Source of the DNA: an uncultured Flavobacteriaceae bacterium
GTDB lineage: Bacteria; Bacteroidota; Bacteroidia; Flavobacteriales; Flavobacteriaceae
Direction of reading: 5' to 3'
DNA length: 64,000 nucleotides
Assembly: GCA_947501845.1 (NCBI GenBank)
Contig: CANMXP010000002.1
Coordinates: 62,001 to 126,000, forward strand
Below the pieces are notes generated by a model. The model was not told the DNA's origin. It did not search any database and saw nothing but the letters and a program-made list of their open reading frames with translations. Shown one piece after another: positions 23,935-58,392 of the stretch (position 1 is the stretch's first letter; every line of letters starts with the position of its first letter). The translations under genes were made by a program, and so were the position numbers.

Positions 23935-23944
23935 TTTTTTGGTT

Positions 23945-32811: not shown

Positions 32812-33153
32812 ATGAAAAAATTATTATTAAGTACCGCTTTATTACTAGTACTAAGTTTATCTTTTACTTCTTGTAGAGATACTAAAAAAGCTGAAGAAGC
32901 CGCTGATGCTGCTGTAGAAGCTGCTGCTGACGCTACTGAAGCTGCTGCTGATGCTGCTGGCGAGGCTGTTGAGGCTGCTGCCGATACTGTAGAAGAAGCT
33001 GCTGGCGATGCTGTTGAGGCTGCTGGTGAAGCTGTTGATGCCGCTGCTGATGCTGCAGAAGGTGCTGCTGATGCTGCTGGCGAAGCCGTTGACAAAGCTG
33101 CTGATGCTGCAAAAAGCAAAATTGACGAAGTAAAGAAAGAAGCTGGTCACTAA
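32812..33153 (+). CDS. Alanine/glutamate-rich helical-repeat lipoprotein
   Basis: 113 residues. The lipoprotein signal (MKKLLLSTALLLVLSLSFTS, cysteine at 21) is followed by about 75 residues made almost only of A, E, D, V and G in repeating units such as AADAAGEAVEAAADTVEEAA, then a basic end (KSKIDEVKKEAGH). The pattern is that of a long amphipathic helix like LEA or apolipoprotein repeats, probably lying on or spanning from a membrane. The DNA is an internal GCTGCTGATGCTGCTGG-type repeat, so copy number may vary between strains. Reverse-strand and shifted frames here are by-products of this composition. A strong terminator follows. Function unknown. Confidence 0.8.
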   Translation: MKKLLLSTALLLVLSLSFTSCRDTKKAEEAADAAVEAAADATEAAADAAGEAVEAAADTVEEAAGDAVEAAGEAVDAAADAAEGAADAAGEAVDKAADAAKSKIDEVKKEAGH

Positions 33154-33173
33154 ATACCAAGATATCTTTTAAA

Positions 33174-33206
33174 CAAAAAAGACCGCCATATGGCGGTCTT
33201 TTTTAT
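33174..33206 (+). terminator. Strong terminator after the Ala-rich lipoprotein gene
   Basis: GACCGCCATATGGCGGTC (33181-33198) is a perfect palindrome flanked by A6 and T6, so it can work in both directions. Confidence 0.9.
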
Positions 33207-33290
33207 TAATATGTATTTTGTTTGAGTAATATTAATGTTCAATCATCTCCTTCTATTTTTACGGTATTTCCTTTTAATACTGCACTGCTA

Positions 33291-36200
33291 TTAATACTTT
33301 AACAGCTTTAAGTAACTGTTATTTACACCTATTAATATAGCATTATTTTCATCACTTGTATTTCCTAATCTAATAGGTTTTAATGCCTTTACATTTTCAG
33401 GTAAAAATATACCGCTATAATTTACAAGCCTTGGCTTAAATTCAAAATTATTTTGGCCCTCCATTAATAAACCTAAAGATGCATCTGCTCGAGTTGTTTC
33501 TATTTCAACATTAAGCTTATTTCCTGCAAGCAGAATGTCATTTATACCATCTTTATTAAAATCATTTATTACGATATTCTGAACTGTAGAATATTGTGCT
33601 GGACCTGGAAGCCTTTCAATTCTAAAAGACCCCTCATTATTAATTAAAAATATTGATTGAAACATATAAACTTCATGCTTTTGGGACGTGAGGGCTTTAT
33701 CATCTAATATAGTTCCTATATCTGCAGTTGCAAAAGCATTATAGGTTGAGAATTTTTTAGATAAGCTTGGCAATTGCTCAGTTGAACACTCTTTGCCGCG
33801 TACTGGGACAATTTTATTTTTATAACCTCTAGCCAGAAAAACATCGTTTGTACCATTTTCATCATAATCTGAAGCAAAAACGTAAAATGGTTTATCCTCA
33901 TTAGCTTTAAATTTATAATTCTCACCAAGGTTTCCCAATACAAAATCCACATCACCATCAAGATCAATATCTTTTGCCTCAATAGTATTCCACCAACCAT
34001 TTGTTTTATTAAATACTGGTAGATCTTTCTTTTCAAATACACCTTCTTTTATTTCAAATAAACTAATAGGCATCCATTCTCCAACCACCAATAATTCATT
34101 TTTAGAGTCGCCATCTATATCTTGCCAAGCTGCATCTGTTACCATACCCACAAGTTCCAAATCTTTAGCAAATTTAGACGTAACATCTGTAAAAAGACCT
34201 GAGTTGTTTTGTAACAAATAACTTTTTGGAGAAGCTGGATAACGATTAGGAACCAACCGCCCACCAACAAACAAATCTAAGTCGCCATCATCATCATAAT
34301 CCAAAGGCACTACACAACCACCACTGGATACTATTTTCGGAAAATCATTCGTCTTAATAAAATACCCTTTTCCGTCATTTAAATATAACCTATCTTGGTA
34401 TTCTGGAGCGTTTTCAGGAAATTCACTACCACCACTAACTACAAATAAATCTGCAAAACCATCGCTATTTGCATCAAAAAATACCGAAGCGACATCTTCT
34501 AAATTTTTATCTTTAAAAAAACTTGACTGTTTACTCTCAATAAAGGTCTCATTTTTTCTTTGAAGAAACAGTTTACCGCTTTGATTTACCGCGCCTCCAA
34601 TATAAAAATCCTCAAGTCCGTCATTATTAATATCTGAAACCGAAATACAAGGCCCTTCGGTTGAAAGTTTATGAGGCAACAATATTTGAGTATTAAAATC
34701 GTTAAAATCGTTTTCTTTATGAACAACCGACTTTCCTAAAAAAGCACGTTTGGCAATGTCTTTAAAAATAGGGGTATATTTCATTTCACCCACCTCTACA
34801 ATCATGGCCTCGTTGTGATCTATAGTTGCAATTGTATTGGCCTTTAAGTTAGTTACCAGATTCACTTTTTTATCTGGCCAAACAACTTTTATAGAATCTA
34901 TAGCTGTTATTTCACCTAAGCCAAAATGTGCTATGGGGTCTACTGAGGACAGGTAACCACGTACATTCTTTAATTCGTGATATTGGATGCCATTATTATG
35001 AAACACTGTGATTTTTGCACCCAATCCCAATGTGTTGTTTTTTGGACCTTTTAATTTTACTTTCAGAAAATTATTTCCAGATTTCTCAGAGTTATTCTCA
35101 TAAACGAAAGCATTATCATTAATGTTATTTACAATTAAATCTAAATCGCCATCATTATCCAAATCACCAACAGCAGCACCATTTGAGAAACTAATAGCCT
35201 CTAAGCCCCATTCTTTTACTTTATCGAAAAACTTTAAACCTCCATCATTTTTATAAATATAATTATGGATTTTATTTTCGTTAAAAAGGTTTACTATATA
35301 ATCTACATTTTCGCTTTTAGACCGCTGCTTCTTTTCTTTTGATTCTATATACTTTGAAAATTTATTGGTAGCATCTTTATCAAAAATATCCCGTCTAAAA
35401 CCATTGGAAACAAACAAATCCCGTAATCCGTCGTTATCAAAATCACTACCAATACAAGACCAACTCCAATCGGTTTTATCGATACCTGCAAACTGACTTA
35501 TTTCACTAAAAAAACCATTCCCATTATTAATTTGAAGCATATTATGCATATACTGATAATGATTACCTGCTTCTAAAATGCGATTGTAACCATCAATATT
35601 CATTGTGGCCATGGTTGTTTTTGCCCGCACATGATCGGATGATGTCATATCCAACTCCACTAGATCCTCATAACCATCGTTATTAAAATCTACCACATCT
35701 ACCCCCATACCGTAAAACGCTACATGGTTGGTCAAAGATTGAATATTTTGTAAAAAAGTTTTATCACCCTTGTTTTCAAAAAAATAGTCACTCTCAAAAT
35801 AATCGTTAGCAACGTATACATCACTAAATCCATCATTATTTAAATCGGACGTTGCTAAACCTAGTCCGTAAGCATAGGTTTGGTTTATTCCCGACTTTAG
35901 GCCGATTTCATGATAAACACCACCTACATTTTCGTAAAGCTTATCCCTATATAAAGGGCTTTGTTCTTCTTTACCTTTTTTAATAGCTTCATGAGAAAGA
36001 AAAAAACGTTTTGGTCGATTAATTAAGTACATGTCTAAATCATTATCATTATCCATGTCAAAAAAGGAAGCCATCATAGAAAATCCTGAGTCTGCAATAC
36101 GATATTGTTTTGCTTGCTCTGAAAATGTATTGTCGCCGTTATTAACATAAAGCAGGTTGGCTCGCTCTTTGTCCGTACCTCGCCAACCACCCTTACAAAT

Positions 36201-36623
36201 GTATATATCCAAGAAGCTGTCACCATTTATATCTACCATAACGACCCCATTATCCCAACCACTTCCACCACCAACACCTGCCGATGCTGTAATATCCTCA
36301 AATTGAAAATTTCCTTTATTTAAATACAACTTATTCTCAACTTGATTGCCTGTAAAATATACATCTGAAAGTCCGTCGTTATTTATATCCCCAATAGCAA
36401 CTCCTCCGCCATTGTAAGCATAATTATAAACTATAAAGAAATTACCAGGATTTTCTTGTATGGTATTATTAAAGTCTATTCCTGTCTTTTTTGAAGACAA
36501 GCTTTTAAATAATGTTTCCTTTTCCGCAATAACAAACTCTTTTTTAACTTGTTCTTTTTTGCATGCAAAAAGTAAACATAAACCTAGTATACAAAACCAA
36601 TATTTTTTATAACAAGTAGTCAT
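33291..36623 (-). CDS. FG-GAP/VCBS-repeat and ASPIC/UnbV-domain surface lipoprotein (paralogue 1)
   Basis: About 1110 residues. The lipoprotein signal is MTTCYKKYWFCILGLCLLFA with cysteine at 21; an ATG three codons upstream is possible. The body has many FG-GAP/VCBS blade motifs with calcium-binding acidic loops (DINNDGLSDVYFTGN, DNDNDLDMYL, DYDDDGDLDLFVGG), enough for two beta-propellers. An ASPIC/UnbV module lies between them (LGLGAKITVFHNNGIQYHEL, PIAHFGLGEI, SIKVVWPDKK). It follows paralogue 2 by about 22 bp in a susC-susD-2-1 operon. I infer a cell-surface binding role, like the surface glycan-binding proteins in other polysaccharide loci. No enzyme motif is recognised. Confidence 0.85.
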   Translation of the reverse strand: MTTCYKKYWFCILGLCLLFACKKEQVKKEFVIAEKETLFKSLSSKKTGIDFNNTIQENPGNFFIVYNYAYNGGGVAIGDINNDGLSDVYFTGNQVENKLYLNKGNFQFEDITASAGVGGGSGWDNGVVMVDINGDSFLDIYICKGGWRGTDKERANLLYVNNGDNTFSEQAKQYRIADSGFSMMASFFDMDNDNDLDMYLINRPKRFFLSHEAIKKGKEEQSPLYRDKLYENVGGVYHEIGLKSGINQTYAYGLGLATSDLNNDGFSDVYVANDYFESDYFFENKGDKTFLQNIQSLTNHVAFYGMGVDVVDFNNDGYEDLVELDMTSSDHVRAKTTMATMNIDGYNRILEAGNHYQYMHNMLQINNGNGFFSEISQFAGIDKTDWSWSCIGSDFDNDGLRDLFVSNGFRRDIFDKDATNKFSKYIESKEKKQRSKSENVDYIVNLFNENKIHNYIYKNDGGLKFFDKVKEWGLEAISFSNGAAVGDLDNDGDLDLIVNNINDNAFVYENNSEKSGNNFLKVKLKGPKNNTLGLGAKITVFHNNGIQYHELKNVRGYLSSVDPIAHFGLGEITAIDSIKVVWPDKKVNLVTNLKANTIATIDHNEAMIVEVGEMKYTPIFKDIAKRAFLGKSVVHKENDFNDFNTQILLPHKLSTEGPCISVSDINNDGLEDFYIGGAVNQSGKLFLQRKNETFIESKQSSFFKDKNLEDVASVFFDANSDGFADLFVVSGGSEFPENAPEYQDRLYLNDGKGYFIKTNDFPKIVSSGGCVVPLDYDDDGDLDLFVGGRLVPNRYPASPKSYLLQNNSGLFTDVTSKFAKDLELVGMVTDAAWQDIDGDSKNELLVVGEWMPISLFEIKEGVFEKKDLPVFNKTNGWWNTIEAKDIDLDGDVDFVLGNLGENYKFKANEDKPFYVFASDYDENGTNDVFLARGYKNKIVPVRGKECSTEQLPSLSKKFSTYNAFATADIGTILDDKALTSQKHEVYMFQSIFLINNEGSFRIERLPGPAQYSTVQNIVINDFNKDGINDILLAGNKLNVEIETTRADASLGLLMEGQNNFEFKPRLVNYSGIFLPENVKALKPIRLGNTSDENNAILIGVNNSYLKLLKY

Positions 36624-36645
36624 AAGGATCATCGTTTATACAGCC

Positions 36646-39600
36646 TTAATTGGATTTAACTTCAATAAATTTGAGGATATCGTTATTATTTGAAACGATT
36701 ATCATCTGCTTATCTCCAACTTTTATTAAGGCTAAATCTTTAACATCTTTAGGAACATAAAACCCACTTTCTTGAATTGAATATGATGCAAATGCTCCTT
36801 GCCCATTGCCTGCTAAAAACACGCCCGTACCAGCATCATTCCTAGGTGTTTCAATCTCAGATCCATATAAATTCCCTGCTGTTACAAGATCTAGATTCCC
36901 ATCATTATTAAAGTCTTTTACCAATATCTGGTTAATATTAGATAATTGCACTTCGTTTGGTAACTTATGCAAAACAAATGCATCTCCTTTATTTTCAATA
37001 TATGAAGTCGCAAATGTATTTACCTGATAGTGCAATGATGCTTCTAATTCTTCCTCTCCATACACATCAACCAGTGTTGCTTCGGCAAATTCATTGTAGG
37101 TTTTAAATTTTTCTTTAATTTCTTTAACCTGAGACGACGAACAGGAACGTCCCCTAACTGGATATTTCTCTCCTTCGTTATAGTAACTTAAAACGATATC
37201 CTTTTTATTATTATCATCGAAATCATTGAAATAAATATCGAAAGTTTCATCTTCAAATGATTTATATTTATAATTAAGCCCTAGGTTCCCAGCCACAAAA
37301 TCGATATCACCATCATTATCAAAATCACCACTGGCAATACTAAACCACCAACCTGTTGTATCTTTTAATCCTAAATTTTCTGAAATTTCTGTAAAGTTCT
37401 TTCCTTGATTATTTTTAAAGACACGTATTGGCATCCATTCGCCTACCACAACAATATCATCCCAGCCATCTTTATCTATATCTTCGATACTTGCCGATGT
37501 AGCTAAACCTAGTTTATCGAATTCTGAGATTAAAGCATCTGTGACATCTAGAAATTTAATGTTTTGAGGTATGCTAACATTTTCCAAGATGTATGTTTTT
37601 GCTGGTGACGGATAATTACCAGGGACTAATCGTCCGCAAACAAGTAAATCCTGATCGCCATCTTTATCGTAATCAAAATTATAAACACGAGATCCACTGG
37701 CCACTATTTCTGGAAGTGCCTCCTTAGTTACTGATAAATTGCCAAAACCATCATTTTTATAAAGCCTGTCTTGAAGCCCCTTAGAATACGGTTCAAATTC
37801 ATTCCCTCCACTAACAACATATAAATCTAAATCGCCATCATTATCGGCATCAAATATTAAAGAGCCCATATCTTCATGAATGGCATCATCATTAAAAATA
37901 AATTCTTTTTTATCAAATAGCCCCTCCTTATTTTGATAGAATAATCCACCTATTTGTCCCGAAGCACCACTAACATAAAAATCATCTAGCCCATCTTTAT
38001 TTAAATCGCCTACAGATACATAAGGTCCAAAAGTGGATGTTTTATGTGGTAACAATATTTCTTTTGCATAGTCGTCATATTTATTTTCAATATGCGCAAA
38101 CAAAGAGTCTAATATTTTATTTTCCGAATTAAAAAACGATTCTTTTTTTTGTGTTTTTTTATCATCATTTAAAGCTGCATCGGCATAATTAAGTACTAAT
38201 GTCTTGTTAACTAGAATCTGGATCATGGTTTGTGTTTTACCATTTTGCCATTCAACATTTAAAGTATCTATTAGCGTTTCTTTCCCCATTCCAAAATGAA
38301 GCAACGGAGCCATGGAAGAAATATAGCCATGTTCTAAGCTTAGTTCTTGAAATTGCTTCTTTCCATTTGCTATAATTGTACATTTTGTACCTATTCCTTT
38401 AGGGTTTAAAGACTCTCCTTTAAATTGGATTGTAATATAATTATTGTTTTCTCTATTGTTATTCTCAAATATGACCGCTTTGTCATCAATGTTATTTAAT
38501 ATAATTTCAAGATCACCGTCATTGTCTAAATCTGCATAAGCAACTCCGTTAGAAAACCCTTCAAACTCCAATCCCCATACTTTATTTATTTTTTCGAACG
38601 TTAAATCTTTCGAGTTTCTAAAAACAAAATTATCTGTTTTCTCTGATGGCATTTTTAACGAGTTTTCAAGGCCATCAATCTTTTGCTTTCCTCCAAAAGC
38701 GTTAGTTGTCTTTTTAATGGCATTAAAAAAATCGGTGTTATTAATTTCTCTTCGGGTTCCATTAGACACATATAAATCTTTCCACCCATCATTATCTAAG
38801 TCGGCAAAAACAGGCCCCCAACTCCAATCGGTACTTGAGGTGTTTGAAATTCTAGAAATATTATTAAACTGGGGCGTTTTATCATTATTTAAAACACCTG
38901 TATTTAGCTGCATACAATTATGCATATATTGGTAATACAAACCAGAATTGTAAGTATCCCAGAATACCTGAGGGTTCATGCTTGCCATGTTTGCTTTTGA
39001 TCGCTTATTTGTAGATGCATCCATATCGGCTTGGAAAATATCTAAAAAGCCATCGTTATTAAAATCGGCTATATCTGCTCCCATACCATACAAAGCGGTA
39101 TGTTTCACAGATTGCTCGATTGTATTTCTAAATGTACCATCTCCATTATTTATATAGCAAAAATCTGCACTGGCAAAATCGTTACTAACATAAATATCTT
39201 TATAACCATCATTATTTAAATCACTTACACTAGCACTTAAAGTCAAGCTATACGACAGAACGCCCGCCTCTTTTGTCACATCTATAAACACCCCATTTCC
39301 ATTATTTTTATATAAATGGTTAGAATGTTTTGATGACGCATGCCTTATGTGCTGCTTAAAAGTTTCTGGTTTTGTTTTAAAGGGTGTTATAGGGTAATTG
39401 GCTACATACAAATCCAGATCACCATCGTTATCATAATCAAAAAAAGTGCTCTGTGTACTATGCCCTTTATCAGCAATACCATATTTTTCAGCTTCTTCCT
39501 TAAACGTTACGTAGCCTTCATCATTCAGCCCTTGATTTATTAATAACTTATTTGGACATGTTTCTTTTTTACCAGACACGCTTAAATAGATATCTAGCCA

Positions 39601-39969
39601 GCCATCATTATTAATATCTATCGTGGTTGCACCTAAAAACCAATCGGTATTAGACAAGCCTGCATTTGCTTTTTCGGTAACATCTTCAAAAGTTAGTCCA
39701 TTTTTATTAAGATAAAGTCTGTTACTAACCATATTACCTGTGAAGTACAAGTCTTGTAAATTATCATTATTAAAATCTCCAACTGCTATACCTCCTCCCA
39801 TATAAATATATGGGTAGTTGAAATAATTTAAAGTATCTGATTCTGTTAATGTATTTTCAAAATCAATTCCTGACTCTTTAGAGCTTAATAATGTAAACTG
39901 TTTTTTATTAATATCTTTTGAGCAGGAAACTACAATAATGAGAAGGAAAAGACTCTTAAACAATTTCAT
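36646..39969 (-). CDS. FG-GAP/VCBS-repeat and ASPIC/UnbV-domain surface lipoprotein (paralogue 2)
   Basis: About 1107 residues from ATG 39969 (MKLFKSLFLLIIVVSC, lipobox cysteine at 16); the open frame extends further upstream without a signal sequence. Same architecture as the following paralogue: N-terminal propeller with DFNNDNLQDLYFTGN and DINNDGWLDIYLSVSG, a central ASPIC/UnbV module (PKGIGTKCTIIANGKKQFQE, PLLHFGMGKE, LNVEWQNGKTQ), and a second propeller with DLNKDGLDDFYVSGASG and DADNDGDLDLYVVSGG. It lies about 110 bp after susD, with a terminator-like hairpin between them. Sequence identity with its neighbour is visible but moderate, so the duplication is old. It probably acts with the SusCD pair at the surface. 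Confidence 0.85.
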   Translation of the reverse strand: MKLFKSLFLLIIVVSCSKDINKKQFTLLSSKESGIDFENTLTESDTLNYFNYPYIYMGGGIAVGDFNNDNLQDLYFTGNMVSNRLYLNKNGLTFEDVTEKANAGLSNTDWFLGATTIDINNDGWLDIYLSVSGKKETCPNKLLINQGLNDEGYVTFKEEAEKYGIADKGHSTQSTFFDYDNDGDLDLYVANYPITPFKTKPETFKQHIRHASSKHSNHLYKNNGNGVFIDVTKEAGVLSYSLTLSASVSDLNNDGYKDIYVSNDFASADFCYINNGDGTFRNTIEQSVKHTALYGMGADIADFNNDGFLDIFQADMDASTNKRSKANMASMNPQVFWDTYNSGLYYQYMHNCMQLNTGVLNNDKTPQFNNISRISNTSSTDWSWGPVFADLDNDGWKDLYVSNGTRREINNTDFFNAIKKTTNAFGGKQKIDGLENSLKMPSEKTDNFVFRNSKDLTFEKINKVWGLEFEGFSNGVAYADLDNDGDLEIILNNIDDKAVIFENNNRENNNYITIQFKGESLNPKGIGTKCTIIANGKKQFQELSLEHGYISSMAPLLHFGMGKETLIDTLNVEWQNGKTQTMIQILVNKTLVLNYADAALNDDKKTQKKESFFNSENKILDSLFAHIENKYDDYAKEILLPHKTSTFGPYVSVGDLNKDGLDDFYVSGASGQIGGLFYQNKEGLFDKKEFIFNDDAIHEDMGSLIFDADNDGDLDLYVVSGGNEFEPYSKGLQDRLYKNDGFGNLSVTKEALPEIVASGSRVYNFDYDKDGDQDLLVCGRLVPGNYPSPAKTYILENVSIPQNIKFLDVTDALISEFDKLGLATSASIEDIDKDGWDDIVVVGEWMPIRVFKNNQGKNFTEISENLGLKDTTGWWFSIASGDFDNDGDIDFVAGNLGLNYKYKSFEDETFDIYFNDFDDNNKKDIVLSYYNEGEKYPVRGRSCSSSQVKEIKEKFKTYNEFAEATLVDVYGEEELEASLHYQVNTFATSYIENKGDAFVLHKLPNEVQLSNINQILVKDFNNDGNLDLVTAGNLYGSEIETPRNDAGTGVFLAGNGQGAFASYSIQESGFYVPKDVKDLALIKVGDKQMIIVSNNNDILKFIEVKSN

Positions 39970-40004
39970 AATGAAACTAATTTTTAGGGGATAAACAAAT
40001 ATAG

Positions 40005-40035
40005 AAAATCCTGTATAGCAAGGATACAGGGTTTT
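40005..40035 (-). terminator. Hairpin between susD and the UnbV lipoprotein genes (partial terminator or processing site)
   Basis: AAAATCCTGTAT (40005-40016) pairs with ATACAGGGTTTT (40024-40035), 12 bp with one wobble. On the minus-strand transcript it ends in UUUUC. It could end most susCD transcripts and lower expression of the two large genes behind it. Confidence 0.6.
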
Positions 40036-40077
40036 CTGATAAATCAAATTAATAAAAAACTAAACTAACAAATCTTC

Positions 40078-41493
40078 TTATAAATTTGTGTTACCCTGTA
40101 ATTCTATGTTCGGTATTGGCAACAAATAGGTATCATTATCAAATCTCTGTAGATCCAACCATCTAGATTGTTCACCTGCCAATTCTACCCACCTCTCATG
40201 CTTAATAGCATCTAAGATTGCAGCGGACCCAGACACAGAAACATCTGGCAAAGAGACCGATGCTCTCGATCGTACTTCATTTAAAAAACCTAAAGCTACA
40301 GTTTCAGAGCCTCCTGAGCGTATTTCTGCTTCTGCCTGCATTAGCAATACATCTGCATAACGAAGTACTCTAGCATTGATACCACTATCTGTAGTCTCTG
40401 AACCTCTGTCATCTAAATTTTGATATTTTCTCCACGCTGGGTTATCGTCTGGGCCTATTGTACCAGCTGTAAATGTGCTCGTACCATTGTTATATGTATT
40501 TGTCATCGTACCATTATCATCAGCATCAATGGAATAGAAATTATCTGCATAACGAGTATCACCGTCTTCATATTCATCTAAAAGTGCCTGACTTGGCTTT
40601 ACGTTGTACCATCCAGAGTATTCCATGGCTCTAAAAGATGTTTCTGAGTTCCCAAGACCATTCTGATTCCAAGAATCTCCAGCTCCTGTAGACTCATCGT
40701 AAAGCACTTCGAATATAGACTCATCATTATGTTCTCCTGCTACAGTAAAATTATCTCTGTAATTATCTACTAAGCTATACCCTGTTACATTTGTCAAAGC
40801 CGATTTTGCTCCTGTTGCGTCACCATTTTGCAATAATACTTTCCCTAATAATGCCCAAGCTGCCCCAGAAGTTGGTCTTCCAACCTCCTGTGTTCCTTTT
40901 GCTGGCAAATTAGTCGTCGCAAACTGTAAATCTGTAACAATAGCATTGTATACATCTGCTACTGATGATTTTGATCTACCCCCTTGTACTGTTTCTAAAT
41001 CTAAAACCAAAGGTATTTCACCATATTTATTCACCAAATTGAAGTAAAAAAGCGCTCTTAAAAAACGCACCTCTCCTAATCTTGATGCTATTTCGGCGGT
41101 AGGTATGTTTTCAAAATTTTCTTCATTTACAATAACAAAATTACAACGTCCTATACCTTGATAATTATGTTGCCAAAATTGATTGTTTCCGTTATTTGCT
41201 TCATCTACATCTCGATTGATCATTTGTACCTTATCTGCTTCTAAATTACCTGCAGCATAATTTTCTCCAGCCACATTATCGTTAATGTAATATTGATATC
41301 TTGCGTAGTTACCTGTCTCTTGAAGGTAAGTATACGCTGCTGTTACTGCCGATTCAAGTTGTGCGCTGGACTTAAAAAATGTTTCAGCCGATAATTGATT
41401 CGGATTTGACAACTCTATATCTGATTTATCGCAGGAAATTAGAATTCCAATAACTACTGCGATACCAGTAAAAAAGATTTTAATTTTTTTCAT
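40078..41493 (-). CDS. SusD/RagB-family surface lipoprotein
   Basis: 471 residues. The lipoprotein signal (IKIFFTGIAVVIGILISC) is followed by DKSDIELSNPNQLSAETFFK. SusD helical repeats include RFLRALFYFNLVNKYGEIPL, and AWALLGKVLLQNGDATGAKS is TPR-like. The C-terminal part has VLRYADVLLMQAEAEIRSGG and LDAIKHERWVELAGEQSRWL. It is the surface lid for the SusC barrel encoded 24 bp upstream. The second and third partners are the UnbV lipoproteins. A GH3 beta-glucosidase nearby suggests a glucan or other beta-linked oligosaccharide, but this is inference. Confidence 0.92.
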   Translation of the reverse strand: MKKIKIFFTGIAVVIGILISCDKSDIELSNPNQLSAETFFKSSAQLESAVTAAYTYLQETGNYARYQYYINDNVAGENYAAGNLEADKVQMINRDVDEANNGNNQFWQHNYQGIGRCNFVIVNEENFENIPTAEIASRLGEVRFLRALFYFNLVNKYGEIPLVLDLETVQGGRSKSSVADVYNAIVTDLQFATTNLPAKGTQEVGRPTSGAAWALLGKVLLQNGDATGAKSALTNVTGYSLVDNYRDNFTVAGEHNDESIFEVLYDESTGAGDSWNQNGLGNSETSFRAMEYSGWYNVKPSQALLDEYEDGDTRYADNFYSIDADDNGTMTNTYNNGTSTFTAGTIGPDDNPAWRKYQNLDDRGSETTDSGINARVLRYADVLLMQAEAEIRSGGSETVALGFLNEVRSRASVSLPDVSVSGSAAILDAIKHERWVELAGEQSRWLDLQRFDNDTYLLPIPNIELQGNTNL

Positions 41494-41517
41494 GTTTTTT
41501 ATATTGTAATTAATATA

Positions 41518-44500
41518 TTAAAATGCTAATTGAACCCCGAAAATAAACGATCTAGGTTGCGGATATACCCCTCTATCTATACCAACACCTGCCGCTGCAG
41601 ACTGTTGTCCTGGAGTCACCGTAGAACTTCCACCAATTTCTGGATCGTAACCAGAATAGTTTGTTATTGTAAATAGGTTTTGCCCAGTTGCATACACTCT
41701 AAATTTAGTAAAGGCTCCATTAGCCAAAGAAGCCAATGCAGATTGCGGCAAACTATATCCAATCGTTAAATTTCTAAGTTTGGCATAAGATCCATCTTCT
41801 ATAAAACGGTCTGAACGGTTCACATTATCAGAATGATCTGCCGTAAACCTTGGTACCGTTGTATTTGTATTTGTTGGTGTCCACCTGTTCAACACAGCAG
41901 TTCCTGCATTAAACAAACGTGTCATCCCTTCAAGGTCATATAGATTCGTATTATAAATATCGTTGCCACTTACACCGCTAAAAAATAAAGTTGCATCGAA
42001 GTTTTTATAATTAGCTGTTAAGTTTAAACCATATGTAAATTCTGGAAACGGATTCCCTATTTTCACATTATCATTACTATCAATAACCCCATCACTGTTT
42101 TGATCTACAAAACGAATATCACCTGCTGCTGCATTTGGCTGCGCACTAGTATCATCACCCTCTTGAAACAGACCATCTGTTTGAAGTCCATAAAAGTAGA
42201 ATAATGATTCGCCTTCTGTTATTCTGGATAAATTTTCACCTTCAAAAACAGAACTTTCTATAAAGGATAAATCGTCACTAAGTTTTGTCGCTTTATTCTT
42301 AGACGTACCAAGGTTTAAGTTTGCAGACCAATTAAAATCTTCCCCTCTATGGTTATAGCCAATATTAAACTCAAATCCTTTTGTATTTGTTGACGCACCA
42401 TTACGTTGGGTAAAAGCAGCCCCTAAACCATCTGATGTTACATTAGGAATTGGCACAATAACATCATCTATATCATTATTATAATACTCAAAAGATAATG
42501 TAAGTGCATTGTTTAAAAGCCCTAAATCGAAACCTATGTTGGTCATTGTTGCCTCTTCCCATTTCAAATCTGGGTTCGCACTACCAAAATTAGAAACACC
42601 AACATTGTTATTTAATCCAACATAGCCATAAGTAGATATTAATCCAGATTCAAAAACGTAATCAGCAGATCCATCATTACCAGTTTTACCCCAAGACCCT
42701 CTAAGCTTCAAATTACTAATCGTATTAGAATCTTTCAAGAAGTTTTCCTCACTTAGTATCCATCCTAAAGACACTGCTGGGAAAGTTCCCCATCTGTTGT
42801 TTTTTCCAAATCGAGAAGATCCGTCACGACGAATTGATGCTGATAGCAAATATTTACCATCATAATTGTAATTAACTCTACCGATGTAAGAAATCAGACC
42901 ATATTCAAAAAGTTGATTAGTAATCTGTCCATTCCCTTGAATTACTGGTACGGCATCTGTCAATGGATTTGAAGCCTGAGAACGATTGTTTCGAGCTGTG
43001 GTTTCGAATTTTTCTGCAACTGCCAATAAATCTAAATTATGAACCTCATTAAAAACAGTTGAATACGTTAATGAATTCGTATAAGTATCTGAATTAAATG
43101 TATTTGCTCTTTGATCTAGTTCTGCTGCTGTACGCTCATTTATACCTTCATCAAAAGAAGGACGATGAATATTTGTAGACAGCGATGTTCTCTCAAAACC
43201 ATATTGAAACTTATAATCTAAGCCATTAATAATTTCGTAAGAGGCATAAAGTGATCCTAATATTTTAGTAATATCAGTGACATTACTACTTATGGTTTGA
43301 AGTCTCACTGGATTTTCCGCATCCGAACCATTATCTAAAGTAGTATCGGTTCCACCAAAACCACCTGGGTTATTCGCATTAAAGACTGGTGTATAAGGCA
43401 ATGATTTAATCATGTGCTCTAACAATGTTCTATCTCCATTCTGTTCTTCGTTTTTCATTTCAGAATCCGCAATAGCCAAGGTCTCTCCTATTTTAAACTT
43501 ATCACCTATTTTAAACTCACTATTGGCTCTTAAAGACGATCTATTAAACCCTGTATTAATAATAATTCCTTCCTGATCAATAAAACCAGCAGATATATTA
43601 AATACCGCTGTATCACTTCCTCCAGAAACACCTAAATTAGTATTATGCACAAAAGCAGTTTGAAATACTTCATCTTGCCAATCGGTGTTAAGTCTTGTAG
43701 ATGCTTCGTCTGTAGTGTACCTATTAGGCAAACCATACGTTTCACTTGCAAATTGTCTAAATTGATTGGTGTCTAATAAATCTAAGGTCTTTGGAACACT
43801 TTGAGAAGACAAATAGGAATCTAGGGTTACTTTCGTTTTTCCAGATCTACCTTTTTTTGTGGTAATAATTACGACACCATTAGATGCTCTAGACCCATAA
43901 ATAGCTGCAGTTGATGCATCTTTTAATACATCCATAGTTTCTATATCATTAGGATTAATTTCATTAATCCCCCCAGACACTATACCATCTATAACATATA
44001 ATGGTTGACTATTACCAAAAGTTCCTAAACCACGTATTTGAACTTGTGGAGCTGTCCCTGGAGACCCTCCATTAATAACCGTAACACCAGGCGCTTGACC
44101 TTGCAAAGCTTGATCTGCCGATGTAACTGGCGTCCTATTAATATCCTCCGATTTCACTGAGGAAATAGCTCCAGTTACCAAACGTCTAGACGTTTTCCCG
44201 TAACCTACTACGACGACCTCACTTAAAGCGCTAGTGTCTTCAACAAGAACCGCATTAATAACCGTTTTTCCATCTACAGCTATTTCTAGTGTCTCATATC
44301 CGACATAGCTAAAAACTAATATAGCATTGGCATCTACATTAGTGAGACTATACTTTCCGTCAAAATCTGCTCCAGCTCCGTTAGAAGTTCCTTTCACTAT
44401 TACATTAGCACCAGGCAAAGGACCACTAGAGTCAGAAATAGTACCAGTGATGTTTTGAGAATGCATAGAGATTCCCAAAACAAAAACTGCTAGAAAAAGT

Positions 44501-44526
44501 AGTTTTTTAAATAATTTTTTTTTCAT
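41518..44526 (-). CDS. SusC/RagA-family TonB-dependent outer-membrane transporter
   Basis: 1002 residues. After the signal peptide (LFLAVFVLGISMHSQ) come a regulatory-like beta-sandwich (ITGTISDSSGPLPGANVIVK, about 25-100), the TonB-box region LSEVVVVGYGKTSRRLVTGA, a plug with QIRGLGTFGNSQPLYVIDGI and VLKDASTAAIYGSRASNGVV, and the barrel ending IFGVQLAF. It imports the ligand captured by the following SusD. The gene is divergent from a cupin-AraC regulator, and the 214-bp gap holds two inverted TTTGTGATA motifs. Confidence 0.95.
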   Translation of the reverse strand: MKKKLFKKLLFLAVFVLGISMHSQNITGTISDSSGPLPGANVIVKGTSNGAGADFDGKYSLTNVDANAILVFSYVGYETLEIAVDGKTVINAVLVEDTSALSEVVVVGYGKTSRRLVTGAISSVKSEDINRTPVTSADQALQGQAPGVTVINGGSPGTAPQVQIRGLGTFGNSQPLYVIDGIVSGGINEINPNDIETMDVLKDASTAAIYGSRASNGVVIITTKKGRSGKTKVTLDSYLSSQSVPKTLDLLDTNQFRQFASETYGLPNRYTTDEASTRLNTDWQDEVFQTAFVHNTNLGVSGGSDTAVFNISAGFIDQEGIIINTGFNRSSLRANSEFKIGDKFKIGETLAIADSEMKNEEQNGDRTLLEHMIKSLPYTPVFNANNPGGFGGTDTTLDNGSDAENPVRLQTISSNVTDITKILGSLYASYEIINGLDYKFQYGFERTSLSTNIHRPSFDEGINERTAAELDQRANTFNSDTYTNSLTYSTVFNEVHNLDLLAVAEKFETTARNNRSQASNPLTDAVPVIQGNGQITNQLFEYGLISYIGRVNYNYDGKYLLSASIRRDGSSRFGKNNRWGTFPAVSLGWILSEENFLKDSNTISNLKLRGSWGKTGNDGSADYVFESGLISTYGYVGLNNNVGVSNFGSANPDLKWEEATMTNIGFDLGLLNNALTLSFEYYNNDIDDVIVPIPNVTSDGLGAAFTQRNGASTNTKGFEFNIGYNHRGEDFNWSANLNLGTSKNKATKLSDDLSFIESSVFEGENLSRITEGESLFYFYGLQTDGLFQEGDDTSAQPNAAAGDIRFVDQNSDGVIDSNDNVKIGNPFPEFTYGLNLTANYKNFDATLFFSGVSGNDIYNTNLYDLEGMTRLFNAGTAVLNRWTPTNTNTTVPRFTADHSDNVNRSDRFIEDGSYAKLRNLTIGYSLPQSALASLANGAFTKFRVYATGQNLFTITNYSGYDPEIGGSSTVTPGQQSAAAGVGIDRGVYPQPRSFIFGVQLAF

Positions 44527-44643
44527 AAATCATTGTGAATTAGTTTATTAAAAAATAATTTTTAATAATTTCATTAAATAAAGTAGATTTGTAATGAACA
44601 AAAATTATAACCTATTATTATTTAATGAATAGTTAACATTTAG

Positions 44644-44730
44644 TTTGTGATACAAATTTAACATCAAAATAAACATTCATATAATATGATTTTATCAAAT
44701 AATAATATATATTTTTCACAATATCACAAA
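44644..44730. promoter_or_regulatory. Inverted TTTGTGATA motifs between susC and divergent araC-type gene
   Basis: TTTGTGATA lies at 44644-44652 on the plus strand, where it is part of TTTGTGATACAAA, a palindrome by itself. It occurs again on the minus strand at 44730-44722. They flank about 70 bp in the divergent promoter region and are candidates for binding of the AraC regulator encoded at 44741. Confidence 0.4.
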
Positions 44731-44740
44731 AACACACCTA

Positions 44741-45616
44741 ATGCTAGATAACATACACAGAGAAATAACCCAGCTAACACCTGAAGATAGTTTTTTAGTG
44801 TTTGACCGGGTAAAAGACGATTTTGACTTCCCTATTCACTTTCATCCTGAATACGAATTAAACTTTATACAAAACGGAAAAGGCGTAAGAAGAATAGCTG
44901 GAGACAGCATTGAAGAAATAGATGATATCGAGCTTGTTTTTGTTGGCTCCAATCTAGTTCACGGGTGGGAACTACACAAATGTCAGAGCAAAAAAATTCA
45001 CGAAATTACTATACATATTAATTACGACTTGCTTGATGAAAAACTATTAGCAAGAAACATATTTAAACCTATAAAGGATATGTTTGAAAAAGCCTCTCAT
45101 GGCATTTTGTTTTCAAGAAAAGTTTCCTTGGATATGGCTCCACGGCTTATAAAACTTAGTAAAACTGATGGTATAGACTATTATTTGGAGTTTATATCTA
45201 TATTATATGATTTAGCAAACTCGAGAAACCAACGTATGCTATCTAATTCTGCGACACAAAAAAAGGACTTTGAAAACAGTTCGAAAATAAAAAAGGTTTA
45301 CGACTATATTCAAAATAATTTTGACAAAAAAATATCCTTAGATGAAATATCATCTTTAGTAAACATGACCCCAGTCTCCTTCAATCGATTTATTAAAAAG
45401 CGAACAGGAAAAACCTTTGTTGTCTACGTAAATAGCACCCGTATAAGCCATGCCAGCAAACTGCTTCTAGAAACAGATTTAAGTATTGCAGAAATAAGCT
45501 TTAAATGCGGATTTAACAACATAGCAAATTTCAATCGTATTTTCAAAAAAGAAAAAAACGGCACCCCTAGTGAGTTTAGGGAAGATTTCAATGCATGCAT
45601 TAAACGTGTTCTATAA
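44741..45616 (+). CDS. Cupin-type AraC-family transcriptional regulator
   Basis: 291 residues, soluble. The N-terminal cupin (about 15-110) has FDFPIHFHPEYELNFIQNGK and FVGSNLVHGWELH, the sugar-sensor arrangement seen in many AraC proteins. The C-terminal double helix-turn-helix has ISLDEISSLVNMTPVSFNRF and the signature from LSIAEISFKCGFNNIANFNR to the end. It is divergent from the susCD-UnbV operon and upstream of the GH3 gene, so it probably regulates both. No terminator is evident. Confidence 0.9.
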   Translation: MLDNIHREITQLTPEDSFLVFDRVKDDFDFPIHFHPEYELNFIQNGKGVRRIAGDSIEEIDDIELVFVGSNLVHGWELHKCQSKKIHEITIHINYDLLDEKLLARNIFKPIKDMFEKASHGILFSRKVSLDMAPRLIKLSKTDGIDYYLEFISILYDLANSRNQRMLSNSATQKKDFENSSKIKKVYDYIQNNFDKKISLDEISSLVNMTPVSFNRFIKKRTGKTFVVYVNSTRISHASKLLLETDLSIAEISFKCGFNNIANFNRIFKKEKNGTPSEFREDFNACIKRVL

Positions 45617-46024: not shown

Positions 46025-48328
46025 ATGAATATAAAATTTAAACTTATTCAATATATAATAGTAATAATAATGTTTATGGCTTGCACCGATAATCACAATG
46101 AAAAAACTATAACTTATTCTAAGATAGATTCGATCAATGAAAAAGTAGACTCCCTTATTAAAATAATGACTCTAAAAGAAAAAATTGGTCAGATGAACCA
46201 ATATAATGGTTTTTGGGATGTCACAGGTCCTGTACCCGACAATGGTGATGCAGAGATAAAATATGAACATTTAAAAAATGGACTCGTTGGTTCCATGCTT
46301 TCCGTAAGAGGAACTAAAGCTGTTAGAGCGGTACAAAAAATTGCTATTGAAGAATCCAGACTTGGAATTCCATTAATTATTGGTTTTGATGTTATTCACG
46401 GTTACAAAACATTAAGTCCCATTCCATTAGCAGAAGCCGCTAGCTGGGATTTGGAAGCCATAGAAAAATCTGCTCAAGTAGCCGCCGCAGAAGCATCTGC
46501 AGCTGGTATAAATTGGACATTTGCCCCTATGGTAGATATATCCAGAGACCCGCGATGGGGACGCGTTATGGAAGGCGCTGGAGAGGATCCTTTTTTAGGA
46601 AGTAAAATCGCAGTGGCAAGGGTCAAGGGGTTTCAAGGAGATGATTTATCTGCCGTCAATACCATAGCTGCTTGCGCCAAACATTTTGCCGCCTACGGAT
46701 TTTCTGAAGCAGGAAAAGAATACAACACGGTAGACATAGGAAACTCAACATTACACAATATTGTACTACCTCCATTTAAGGCAGCTGTAAATGCAGATGT
46801 AAAAACTTTAATGAATGCATTTAACGAACATGATGGAGTTCCTGCTACTGGAAACGAATATCTGTTAAGAAATATTTTAAAAGATAAATGGGACTTTAAA
46901 GGCTTTGTAATTACCGATTGGGCATCAATAAAAGAAATGGTTGTTTGGGGATACACAAAAGACAAAAGAGATGCTGCGAAAATGGCTGCATTAGCTGGTT
47001 CTGATATGGATATGGAATCACATATTTACGTATCCGAATTAGAACAATTAGTAAAAGATGGGGTAATTGACGAAAAGATTATAGATGAGGCTGCCAGTAG
47101 AATTTTGGCTGTAAAATTTGAATTGGGCTTATTTGACGATCCATATAGATATTGTGATGAAGCAAGAGAAAAGGAAGTTGTAAATAATCCAGAACATTTA
47201 GATGCCGTCCTAGATATGGCAAAAAAATCTATTGTTTTACTAAAAAATGAAAATGATTTATTGCCATTAAAAAAAGAAGGACAAAATATTGTTCTGATTG
47301 GTGCTTTAGCAAATGAAAAAAACAGTCCGCTTGGAAGCTGGCGAATTGCATCGAAAGATAATACTGGTGTCTCTGTACTGGAAGGCATGCAAAACTACAA
47401 AGGCAATAATTTAGTTTACAAAAAAGGTGCTGATGTAACTGTTGGTGACACTCAATTTGTCGACGAGCTTACAATAAACACCACTGACAAAAGCGAATTC
47501 AAAGACGCAATAGATGCCGCCAAAAAAGCAGATGTAGTTGTTATGGTTCTGGGAGAACATGGTTTTCAAAGTGGTGAAGCCAGAAGTAGAACAGATATTG
47601 ATCTACCTGGAGTTCAACAAGAACTGTTAGAAGAAGTCTATAAAATAAATAAAAATATAGTTTTAGTATTAAATAACGGCAGACCCCTATCTATTACTTG
47701 GGCAGATAAGCACATCCCAGCCATTCTCGAAACATGGCAGCTTGGAACACAAGCAGGGCATGCCGTAGCACAGGTACTATATGGCGACTACAACCCTAGT
47801 GGTAAGCTCCCTATGACCTTCCCTAGAAATGTTGGTCAAATCCCTATATATTACAATCATAAAAATACGGGAAGACCTGTTAGAGACGCTTATAATCCCG
47901 ACTTAGTTTTTTGGTCTCATTATAGCGATGTGGAAAACACACCTCTTTACCCTTTTGGTTATGGTTTAAGCTATACTACTTTTAAATATGAGAATTTAGC
48001 ACTCGAAAAAACAGTATTTAGTATAAATGAAAATATCAATCTTTCTATTGATATAACCAATACAGGAAAAATGACGGGCAAAGAAGTCGTACAACTTTAC
48101 ATTAGAGATCTGGTTGCAAGTACAACACGGCCTGTAAAAGAATTAAAAGGGTTTGAATTAATTGAACTGCAAGTTGGTGAAACCAAAACTGTAAACTTTG
48201 TTTTAAACAAAGCCAGTTTAGGATTTTATAGCAATCAAGGGGATTTTATTACAGAACCTGGAGAATTCGAAATATTTGTTGGAGGAAACTCAAATACAAC
48301 TTTAAATACGCGTTTTGAATTAAAGTAA
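46025..48328 (+). CDS. bglX: Glycoside hydrolase family 3 beta-glucosidase, lipoprotein
   Basis: 767 residues, BglX-like. The N-terminus is a lipoprotein signal ending FMAC. The TIM-barrel domain shows GRDP-type sequence SRDPRWGRVMEGAGEDPFLG, CAKHFAAYG, and the nucleophile aspartate in GFVITDWASIKEM (about residue 298). The second domain carries the probable acid/base glutamate in GEHGFQSGEARSR (about residue 518). A C-terminal fibronectin III-like domain follows (VFSINENINLSIDITNTGKM). It releases terminal beta-D-glucose (or xylose) from oligosaccharides, here probably in the periplasm. It is the only carbohydrate-active enzyme in the window and the best clue to the island's substrate. A strong terminator follows. 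Confidence 0.92.
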   Translation: MNIKFKLIQYIIVIIMFMACTDNHNEKTITYSKIDSINEKVDSLIKIMTLKEKIGQMNQYNGFWDVTGPVPDNGDAEIKYEHLKNGLVGSMLSVRGTKAVRAVQKIAIEESRLGIPLIIGFDVIHGYKTLSPIPLAEAASWDLEAIEKSAQVAAAEASAAGINWTFAPMVDISRDPRWGRVMEGAGEDPFLGSKIAVARVKGFQGDDLSAVNTIAACAKHFAAYGFSEAGKEYNTVDIGNSTLHNIVLPPFKAAVNADVKTLMNAFNEHDGVPATGNEYLLRNILKDKWDFKGFVITDWASIKEMVVWGYTKDKRDAAKMAALAGSDMDMESHIYVSELEQLVKDGVIDEKIIDEAASRILAVKFELGLFDDPYRYCDEAREKEVVNNPEHLDAVLDMAKKSIVLLKNENDLLPLKKEGQNIVLIGALANEKNSPLGSWRIASKDNTGVSVLEGMQNYKGNNLVYKKGADVTVGDTQFVDELTINTTDKSEFKDAIDAAKKADVVVMVLGEHGFQSGEARSRTDIDLPGVQQELLEEVYKINKNIVLVLNNGRPLSITWADKHIPAILETWQLGTQAGHAVAQVLYGDYNPSGKLPMTFPRNVGQIPIYYNHKNTGRPVRDAYNPDLVFWSHYSDVENTPLYPFGYGLSYTTFKYENLALEKTVFSINENINLSIDITNTGKMTGKEVVQLYIRDLVASTTRPVKELKGFELIELQVGETKTVNFVLNKASLGFYSNQGDFITEPGEFEIFVGGNSNTTLNTRFELK

Positions 48329-49740: not shown

Positions 49741-51342
49741 CTATTCGGATGCTCTTCTGGTATTTAACTCTAAAGTTATTTCGTTTAATTTCTTTTGATT
49801 TAATGGATAGAAAAACATAAAGCCTGCCGCAATTAAAGATATTATTGCAGGAATCCAGCTCATCAACATCACTATTCCAGGAATGGCACCACTAATAGCA
49901 ACGGCATCTTGACCATCATAATTAAAGTTTGCCAAAACAAAACCAATAATGGCACCTGCTATACCGCCTCCAAACTTTGTAGCAAACGACCCAGCCGAGT
50001 ATATAAGACCTGTGGCTCTTCGACCGTTTTTAAACTCAGAATAATCAGCTGCATCTCCTAACATTACAAAAAACAACGTTGGAAAAATCGCTGCCAAAAA
50101 TTCTGAAACTATACCAATGGTAAAAATTGCCCCTACATTATCGGGACCACAAAAAACAAGTAATGCATTCACTAATCCCGATAAAATCAATGCATAAATA
50201 AACAGATTTCGCTTACCTAGTTTCTTCCCTAAAGGTGCCGTTATTATAGCACCTGCAATCGATGCCAGCATTAATCCAACCAAAAAGCTTGCTGCCAATA
50301 ATTGGTTGTTTAAATAATGGGTAAAATAGATAACAACAATGCCTTGTTTTATTGAGTTATAAACATTGAACAATAAACCCACAGCTAATAAAACCAACCA
50401 CGGTCTATTAGATATTAAATCCTTTAAATCTTTCCCTAAATTACTTTTTTGATCTTTAGGTGGCGCAACCCTTTCTTTAGTTGTATAAAATGTTATGAAC
50501 ATAAAAATAGCCAAGAACACCGAAAGCAAATAAATCGAGTTACTATAACCTTGTTTTTGATCTATAATAGAGATTTTATCAGCGTCAATATTTGTTTCTC
50601 CGCTCACAATAAACGTATAGGGTTTATCAGCTTCTATAGAAAAACTTTTAGCATGTGTAGGCGTGTTCTCTTCCGCACTCATAGTTTTATCATCCCATGT
50701 AAATAAAGCGATACCAGCTTCTGTTTTTATATTGACATTAGGCACATCCGACGGTGAAGATACCTCAACTTTAAACTTCTCTTCACTTAGTTTATCTACT
50801 TTAATAGCAGGGTTAATATTTCCAAAATAAGCAACTAAAAAAAGTAATACACCTTGTACAAGCATACCTCCTCCAAAAGCCCCAACCATTCTAAAAGACC
50901 CTATACTTGTTCGCACTTTATCATCTCCTGTCATAACCGCCATTAATGCGCCATAGGGTATATTATTAGCAGTATAAATGAGCGTAAATAAAATATATGT
51001 AATATAGGCATATAAAACTTTTCCAGAATCACTTAAATCTGGGCTTGTAAAGAGTAATGAAAGAATAGTTGCCAACGGAATTGCTGTCCACAAAATCCAA
51101 GGACGAAATTTTCCATATTTAGACTTCGTTCTATCACCTACAACCCCCATCACCACATCACTAATACCATCACTAAATCGAGCTACTAAGAACAAGACCC
51201 CTACAGTTGCGGGGCTTAACCCAAACACATCTGTATAAAAAATGAACAAGAATGTAGCCACCCCTCTCCAAGCTATATTTGCAGCCCCATCTCCTAAAGC
51301 ATATCCTATTTTTTCGGTTATCGAAACTCTATTTTTTATCAT
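49741..51342 (-). CDS. GPH-family sugar:cation symporter (MFS) with periplasmic insertion
   Basis: 533 residues with 12 predicted membrane segments. GPH/MelB-type marks are EKIGYALGDGAANIAWRGVA, RFSDGISDVVMGVVGDRTKS, KYGKFRPWILWTAIP and RMVGAFGGGM. The family imports glycosides, pentosides or hexuronides with Na+ or H+. Between membrane segments 5 and 6 (about residues 178-265) there is a hydrophilic insertion of some 85 residues (TEAGIALFTWDDKTMSAEEN and neighbours), which should lie in the periplasm. Standard GPH proteins have only a short loop there. The stop codon is directly at the IS junction. It is divergent from a membrane AraC regulator. Confidence 0.9.
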   Translation of the reverse strand: MIKNRVSITEKIGYALGDGAANIAWRGVATFLFIFYTDVFGLSPATVGVLFLVARFSDGISDVVMGVVGDRTKSKYGKFRPWILWTAIPLATILSLLFTSPDLSDSGKVLYAYITYILFTLIYTANNIPYGALMAVMTGDDKVRTSIGSFRMVGAFGGGMLVQGVLLFLVAYFGNINPAIKVDKLSEEKFKVEVSSPSDVPNVNIKTEAGIALFTWDDKTMSAEENTPTHAKSFSIEADKPYTFIVSGETNIDADKISIIDQKQGYSNSIYLLSVFLAIFMFITFYTTKERVAPPKDQKSNLGKDLKDLISNRPWLVLLAVGLLFNVYNSIKQGIVVIYFTHYLNNQLLAASFLVGLMLASIAGAIITAPLGKKLGKRNLFIYALILSGLVNALLVFCGPDNVGAIFTIGIVSEFLAAIFPTLFFVMLGDAADYSEFKNGRRATGLIYSAGSFATKFGGGIAGAIIGFVLANFNYDGQDAVAISGAIPGIVMLMSWIPAIISLIAAGFMFFYPLNQKKLNEITLELNTRRASE

Positions 51343-58388: not shown

Positions 58389-58392
58389 AAAA

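What the first reader, a model, noticed from the sequence alone, without database searches (positions are those of the whole stretch)
33291..39969. Pair of 1100-residue UnbV/FG-GAP lipoproteins as part of a SusCD system
Two tandem paralogues with two propellers and an UnbV module each follow susC-susD in the same direction and carry lipoprotein signals. They account for over half of the operon's coding length, yet no function is known for them. I propose that they form a large surface complex with SusCD, a new class of ligand-binding or scaffold partner, possibly calcium dependent. This is the strongest candidate for an undescribed system in the window.
Basis: partly seen in the sequence, partly recalled or inferred. 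Interest (0 to 1): 0.7.

Follow-up and report, generated by a model that had tools for sequence, protein, structure and literature searches.

The report
Double-propeller lipoproteins beside SusCD importers
Two large propeller-shaped lipoproteins with calcium-type motifs are encoded right behind a sugar importer, a pairing seen in many Bacteroidota for which I found no described function.

Summary
33291-39969 (-) encodes two tandem lipoproteins (1107 and 1113 aa) with FG-GAP repeats and one UnbV domain each, 108 bp behind susD. Confident AlphaFold models show propeller, UnbV module, second propeller; the only solved relative with an UnbV module, CRTAC1, covers the first propeller and the module. 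Regulator-susC-susD-A-B recurs in related Flavobacteriaceae, in several beside GH9, GH3, GH94, GH1 or a GPH symporter: probably a beta-glucan locus with the pair in the susE/susF slot. New here: a terminator-like hairpin between susD and the UnbV gene (77 of 79 junctions; 9 of 18 where another gene follows susD), so the lipoproteins may be made at lower dose than SusCD. Best reading: a widespread accessory surface lipoprotein of SusCD, undescribed in the papers searched. Complex formation, surface exposure, glycan binding and calcium dependence are not shown; 18 of 48 full-length genes lack susD upstream within 8.5 kb, so SusCD is not an obligate neighbour.

The parts
41518..44526 (-). susC (SusC/RagA TonB-dependent importer), first gene of the block
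   Evidence: TIGR04056 845 bits
40078..41493 (-). susD (SusD_RagB lipoprotein), 24 bp behind susC
   Evidence: PF07980 and PF14322 over cut-off; gap
40003..40037 (-). terminator-like stem-loop between susD and UnbV-A, ending 33 nt before the UnbV-A ATG
   Evidence: z -2.3 in the window, -2.3 to -5.6 over the 10 loci folded; 77 of 79 susD-UnbV junctions at -12 kcal/mol or better; compensated changes in 11 of 14 pairs over 10 loci; distance. The consensus scan lists it (40030-40010), but finds 4 such sites in 12 kb where shuffles give 5.2, so that listing alone proves nothing
36646..39969 (-). UnbV-A, 1107 aa lipoprotein: propeller 1 (about 25-503), UnbV module (about 510-594), propeller 2 (about 651-1104)
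   Evidence: Pfam; pLDDT 92.5, pTM 0.92
33291..36632 (-). UnbV-B, 1113 aa lipoprotein of the same architecture, 40% identical to A
   Evidence: (pLDDT 92.3, pTM 0.91); identity
44741..45616 (+). divergent AraC-type regulator, likely regulator of the block
   Evidence: HTH_18; orthologue in 7 of 11 related loci, an HTCS in the other 4; regulation itself not tested
46025..48328 (+). GH3 beta-glucosidase (BglX-like), probable member of the same locus
   Evidence: a homologue in 4 of 11 related loci, 67 and 72% identical in two and 30 and 31% in two
49741..51342 (-). GPH-type sugar symporter, possible member of the locus
   Evidence: TIGR00792 354 bits; homologue (78 and 66%) in 2 of 11 related loci

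Best explanation
UnbV-A and UnbV-B are outer-membrane lipoproteins with two calcium-blade propellers joined by an UnbV module. They take the place of the surface glycan-binding lipoproteins (susE/susF position, recalled) in a beta-glucan utilisation locus and work with SusCD. Most likely they stand on the cell surface, bind the polysaccharide or hold surface enzymes near the importer, and so feed SusCD. Read-through past a hairpin behind susD probably makes them at lower dose than SusCD. Shown: gene order and its recurrence, architecture (predicted with high confidence), lipid Cys, calcium-type motifs, hairpin, glucanase neighbours in related loci. Inferred: surface exposure, glycan or enzyme binding, contact with SusCD, the dose effect, the substrate.
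For: 30 of 48 full-length genes (14 of 16 genomes that have any) have susD upstream on the same strand within 8.5 kb; 0 of 54 UnbV of other architecture do (Fisher 1.2e-13 taking genes as independent, which relatives are not; about 0.42 expected by a rough density estimate). Own genome: 8 of 11 full-length in a susD chain. In the 80 loci plus the window, picked by likeness to UnbV-B, 89 of 117 have susD upstream. In the 11 related loci chosen, susC, susD and B are in 11 and A in 10, with an AraC orthologue in 7 and an HTCS in 4. GH9, GH3, GH94 or GH1 lie in several of them; GH16, GH10, sulfatase and PKD/CBM4_9 genes in other UnbV loci. A and B fall in separate orthologous clades. Cys in 167 of 172. 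Calcium-blade propellers include a lectin (PMC3123361, passages).
Against: 18 of 48 full-length genes have no susD upstream within 8.5 kb. No clear-cut motif marks susD-linked members: most residues at 90% or more in the 122 linked rows are also high in the 39 unlinked (exceptions such as K325 0.99 against 0.79; the largest difference is F472, 0.89 against 0.46). SusCD pairs with UnbV do not form one clade, though SusC labels cluster. Deep co-divergence is weak. PKD/CBM4_9 proteins, likely classical glycan binders, occur in some of the same operons, so UnbV is not always a replacement. No known carbohydrate-binding module in the pair. Among 55 downstream genes scanned, TPR proteins are the commonest family match (9), not enzymes of one pathway.
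Confidence: 0.52

Rival explanations
1. Cell-surface adhesins or matrix proteins: co-regulated with the locus and attaching cells to polysaccharide particles, but not part of the importer.
For: Two papers class FG-GAP or UnbV proteins under adhesion (PMC2668756 and PMC9957290, passages); 18 of 48 full-length genes lie away from susD; CRTAC1, the nearest solved relative, is extracellular (recalled).
Against: The place downstream of susD in 14 of 16 genomes and in loci for varied glycans is tighter than co-regulation alone needs (inference).
Confidence: 0.22
2. Surface enzymes: calcium-blade propellers that cleave the polysaccharide (lyase or hydrolase), as rhamnogalacturonan lyase does on a related fold.
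For: Calcium blades occur in rhamnogalacturonan lyase (PMC3123361, passages); W382, W384 and Q1008 are invariant and H626, K325 and W875 nearly so in linked rows and could form a site.
Against: No enzyme family in Pfam or NCBIfam at E 0.01; no lyase among the 50 rows listed of 956 fold matches; several loci already hold GH enzymes.
Confidence: 0.13
3. A fixed, stoichiometric third and fourth subunit of this SusCD importer.
For: Close gene linkage; orthologous A and B each kept in the cassette; overall distance correlation with SusD 0.79, none of 2000 permutations as high (confounded by species descent).
Against: Hairpin between susD and UnbV-A; one related locus (L021) lacks A; about 10 of the 30 susCD pairs listed in the own genome have a UnbV near (my count); weak deep co-divergence.
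Confidence: 0.1

Closest known systems
CRTAC1 (cartilage acidic protein 1), PDB 9etn
   Same: FG-GAP propeller followed by an UnbV module; best profile match in the PDB copy (E 3.6e-32) and best fold match (E 1.2e-29, TMt 0.73); its significant stretches fall on residues 177-315 and 448-581 of UnbV-A
   Different: 551-586 residues with no second propeller (TMq 0.38); animal protein without lipid anchor or SusCD (recalled)
SusE/SusF and other surface glycan-binding lipoproteins of SusCD loci (recalled)
   Same: Tandem lipoproteins encoded directly behind susD in a polysaccharide utilisation locus
   Different: Only FG-GAP and UnbV families found in the pair at E 0.01; size and fold differ; binding untested
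Calcium-blade propellers: fungal lectin, rhamnogalacturonan lyase, PilY1, integrin alpha (PMC3123361, passages)
   Same: Dx[DN]xDG loops on propeller blades
   Different: Other families; no UnbV module or SusCD link is mentioned in the passages seen
Polysaccharide utilisation loci of Bacteroidota
   Same: susC-susD pair, AraC or HTCS regulator, GH3 and, in related loci, GH9, GH94, GH1; sugar symporter
   Different: The lipoproteins behind susD are UnbV proteins, for which the paper searches made here found no description

Membership tests
UnbV_ASPIC (PF07593) proteins | UnbV_ASPIC domain over the curated cut-off | tested here: met
   57.9 (A) and 74.2 (B) bits against 23.4
CRTAC1 family | FG-GAP propeller plus UnbV module | tested here: met
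   fold match TMt 0.73; stretches 177-315 and 448-581 of A
CRTAC1 family | single-propeller architecture (9etn has 551-586 residues) | tested here: not met
   a second propeller fills about 651-1104 of A (likewise B)
SusE/SusF-type surface glycan-binding proteins | lipoprotein gene behind susD in the same direction | tested here: met
   the lipid anchor is predicted, not measured
SusE/SusF-type surface glycan-binding proteins | SusE/SusF or known SGBP domains | tested here: not met
   only FG-GAP and UnbV families at E 0.01
SusE/SusF-type surface glycan-binding proteins | binds the imported glycan at the cell surface | not testable with these tools
   needs binding and surface-exposure assays
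Polysaccharide utilisation locus | susCD pair with regulator and carbohydrate enzymes | tested here: met
   shared regulation not tested
Propeller polysaccharide lyase (PL11-like) | match to a lyase family | tested here: not met
   no such match or in the 50 rows listed; catalysis itself untested

The most novel reading that the evidence does not exclude
Double-propeller UnbV lipoproteins are a general, phylum-wide accessory class of SusCD import machines that work on gut Bacteroides could not have shown: calcium-loaded surface platforms that catch polymer and dock locus enzymes, kept below the dose of SusCD by a conserved hairpin behind susD.
Probability: 0.33. Interest if true: 0.72.

Novelty: new variant of a known kind. 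Interest (0 to 1): 0.55.

Why it matters
SusCD importers are a main route of glycan uptake in Bacteroidota, and what is known of their surface partners comes mainly from gut Bacteroides (recalled); the UnbV family rang in none of the 14 control genomes, one of which is Bacteroides ihuae. A full-length profile matched in 51 of 148 genomes of the phylum (some matches partial, five candidates scored in most genomes), and where position was checked 30 of 48 full-length genes lay downstream of susD. If they are surface partners of SusCD, much glycan uptake outside the gut uses machinery nobody has assayed. The hairpin gives a simple, testable account of how the parts are dosed.

Tried and rejected
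Chance adjacency: rejected (about 0.42 expected, 30 seen). A trait of all UnbV proteins: rejected, other architectures show 0 of 54 within 8.5 kb; some of these lie 11-30 kb downstream of a susD (G003, G007, G008, G050, G058). UnbV-linked SusCD as one clade: not found in 30 own-genome pairs; linked SusC cluster (5 changes, shuffled mean 7.9, 1 of 500 as low), SusD less (6, 7.9, 32 of 500); one doubtful pair (L106) was left unlabelled. A SusCD-specific motif: none clear. Known RNA family: no Rfam match overlaps 40003-40037 at E 1 in 33000-45000. A separate promoter behind the hairpin: a -33/-7-like pattern (recalled) in 1 of 52 junctions for which a start could be placed, of 66; hairpin-to-ATG distance is 14-208 nt (10th-90th percentile), so some loci have room for one.

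Hairpin as a UnbV-only mark: not shown. susD followed by other genes has it in 9 of 18: 7 of 8 with gaps of 80 bp or more, against 61 of 63 for susD-UnbV; 2 of 10 with shorter gaps against 16 of 16. The short-gap comparison is weak, because ORF starts of UnbV genes are often set too far upstream, as in the window. So it may mark the end of susCD wherever space allows. Unrelated gene pairs with gaps of 80 bp or more: 21 of 59.

First survey (36 of 58 full-length against 3 of 50 other, own genome included, two edge-cut duplicates dropped) used an ORF filter that hid at least one susD (G030); one search replaced it for the 60 other genomes. The same filter was used, whose 28 misses include loci (L040, L062, L092) where one search shows susD two genes up. 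Mirror test: strong overall but confounded by species descent.

Full report
Observation. The block susC-susD-UnbV-A-UnbV-B on the minus strand is as described. UnbV-A is best read from ATG 39969 (1107 aa); the ORF listing starts it at an upstream TTG. Gaps are 24, 108 and 13 bp and the pair makes 60.1% of the four genes. A Cys stands at the lipid column in 167 of 172 full-length relatives aligned, linked or not; at least two of the five exceptions have a nearby Cys out of register (L044, L071). Behind the Cys the commonest letters are K or S at +2 (53 and 37 of 167), K at +3 (53) and E or D at +4 (51); the link of such residues to surface export in Bacteroidota is recalled, not tested.

Architecture. 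AlphaFold models of both are confident (A pLDDT 92.5, pTM 0.92, 82 rows; B 92.3, 0.91, 58 rows). From DSSP I read a propeller (about 25-503 in A), the UnbV beta module (about 510-594) and a second propeller (about 651-1104); blade numbers (about seven, and seven or eight) are my reading of the strand list. Strict calcium-type motifs number 12 and 10 against about 0.13 in shuffles. Fold search: murine CRTAC1 9etn first (E 1.2e-29, TMt 0.73, TMq 0.38); the other 49 rows shown of 956 are DDB1-containing and spliceosome entries with TM at or below 0.29. By sequence, CRTAC1 and integrins alone match the family profile in the PDB copy (8 distinct sequences), and CRTAC1 alone matches UnbV-A itself, its significant stretches on residues 177-315 and 448-581. 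So no solved relative of the whole architecture was found there.

Survey. PF07593 rings in 28 of 61 genomes of the phylum sample and PF07980 in 33 of 61. The SusD list was cut, so positions were counted on fetched DNA. All 105 UnbV places outside the own genome were fetched with about 8.5 kb on each side where contigs allowed (100 stretches). With profiles built here from window seeds, 48 UnbV genes fit the full two-propeller model (16 genomes) and 54 do not (21 genomes). susD upstream on the same strand: under 1 kb 14, under 5 kb 26, under 8.5 kb 30 of 48, in 14 of 16 genomes; 0 of 54 for the others. susD only on another side or strand within 8.5 kb: 1 of 48 and 2 of 54. Expected by chance for the 48: about 0.42, a rough density estimate. 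Own genome, by the earlier method: 8 of 11 full-length. Of the other three, one is divergent from a susCD pair (C7), one has its susD about 14 kb upstream, the ORFs of 150 aa or more shown between them all on its strand (C15), and one lies near a contig start (C4). About 10 of the 30 susCD pairs listed in the own genome have a UnbV near (my count). A wider search with the full-length profile matches at E 1e-30 in 51 of 148 genomes, 35 of 83 genera; only five candidates were scored in most genomes, some matches are partial, and position was not checked there.

Related loci. One search returned 80 loci, chosen by likeness to UnbV-B and so biased. Of 117 full-length genes in them and the window, 58 are first behind susD, 13 follow another UnbV behind susD, 18 have susD further up, 28 have none by that method (8 of these at an edge). 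In 11 loci chosen as orthologous, susC, susD and UnbV-B are present in all 11 and UnbV-A in 10 (L021 lacks it; in L020 it is split in two ORFs). An AraC orthologue is present in 7 of 11 and an HTCS lies upstream in the other 4. GH9 with CelD_N follows UnbV-B in L019, L023 and L028; GH3 lies in L019, L020, L021 and L028, GH94 in L019 and L028, GH1 in L020, a GPH symporter in L020 and L021; not every gene of the 11 loci was scanned (20 sequences, two of them from the window). This points to a beta-glucan; the linkage is not known. Among 55 genes in or behind other susD-UnbV operons, Pfam finds TPR (9 for TPR_12), PKD (4), CBM4_9 (4), sulfatase (3), GH9 (3), GH16 (2), GH10 (1) and others, 25 of 80 families being shown, so the class is not tied to one glycan.

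Evolution. In a tree of 172 full-length proteins, window A groups with first-position and window B mostly with second-position genes of the related loci; susD-linkage needs 19 changes and position 8 (FastTree, midpoint root). Over 54 loci, distances of UnbV correlate with SusD at 0.79 and SusC at 0.78 (SusC-SusD 0.96); among 1053 pairs with UnbV under 50% identical the values are 0.27 and 0.27 against 0.85. So UnbV travels with SusCD over moderate divergence but is not locked to it as SusC is to SusD. Conserved residues are mostly shared by linked (122) and unlinked (39) members.

Hairpin. The 108 nt between susD and UnbV-A fold into a stem-loop at 40003-40037 (z -2.3; nine other loci -2.3 to -5.6; of the 11 related loci L020 and L021 were not folded there). 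A hairpin could be drawn at all 66 junctions read in detail, the weakest -8.0 kcal/mol (L039), with 4.4 T in the next 8 bases on average. Against letter shuffles, z is under -3 in 95% of 66 susD-UnbV junctions, 36% of 39 susD without UnbV next, 13% of 70 UnbV ends and 33% of 70 other gene ends, the last two drawn at random from more. By a fixed threshold (-12 kcal/mol) 77 of 79 susD-UnbV junctions have it, including 13 of 13 examined from the 60-genome sample, against 9 of 18 susD-other, 1 of 10 UnbV-UnbV, 21 of 57 UnbV-other and 33 of 90 other pairs, the last drawn at random; only gaps of 20-500 bp were counted. With gaps of 80 bp or more, susD-other reaches 7 of 8, so the mark may belong to the end of susCD rather than to UnbV. 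Arms differ in sequence but stay largely complementary: 11 of 14 pairs show a compensated change in the 10 loci aligned (window and nine; L020 and L023 left out), while several pairs are broken in one to three rows. Only 33 nt remain to the ATG in the window. The simplest reading is a leaky terminator or stability element that sets UnbV below SusCD; this is inferred.

Literature. UnbV with SusD 0, VCBS with SusD 0, FG-GAP with polysaccharide utilization loci 0, CRTAC1 with TonB-dependent 0, FG-GAP with SusD 2 (one a general mention, one an unrelated horse study by its listing), FG-GAP with TonB-dependent 1 (the same general mention), UnbV with Bacteroidetes 2; of 219 papers with UnbV or ASPIC 30 were listed. 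The library is open-licence only, so a subscription paper or a database note may exist. Seen: search listings, and passages of PMC2668756, PMC9957290, PMC3174227 and PMC3123361.

Verdict. A real, widespread accessory lipoprotein class of SusCD loci, not described in the papers searched, here probably in a beta-glucan locus; the mechanism is inferred from position and architecture.

Noticed in passing
susD-UnbV junctions of L038, L041, L042, L045, L046, L047, L058, L061, L072, L092: 10 of 66 junctions share the arm CGGTAAG behind susD, against 1 of 39 susD without UnbV next, 0 of 132 UnbV ends and 2 of 200 other gene ends.
   Followed up: partly
L077:10436-11125; similar-sized genes between UnbV genes in L063, L074, L075, L081, L084, L085: A 3-keto-disaccharide hydrolase (PF06439, L077) lies between UnbV genes; the gene in that place in L063 and L085 had no Pfam match at E 0.001.
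   Followed up: partly
L020, UnbV-A place (7569 onward): UnbV-A of Polaribacter sp. Hel1_85 is split in two ORFs of 812 and 261 aa.
   Followed up: no
L040, L062, L092: A 491-525 aa protein matching the full-length UnbV profile, without a UnbV domain hit, lies between susD and the full-length UnbV gene.
   Followed up: no
own genome G000 C17, C29, C10: UnbV proteins of other architecture: 630 aa directly behind susD (C17), 1328 aa four genes behind susD (C29), 1340 aa with no susD in the stretch (C10).
   Followed up: partly
window 55194-60159 (+) and 60511-63987 (-); 22459-27076 (-): Two further susCD pairs without UnbV next to them, one beside an HTCS regulator.
   Followed up: no
window 33154-33247, just past the UnbV-B stop: Several Rfam leader and sRNA models match weakly, all well under their cut-offs: perhaps the hairpin that ends the operon.
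   Followed up: no
genomes G021, G025 and G002: 31, 31 and 32 SusD matches but no UnbV match: the class is absent from some SusCD-rich genomes, two in the window's family and one outside it.
   Followed up: no
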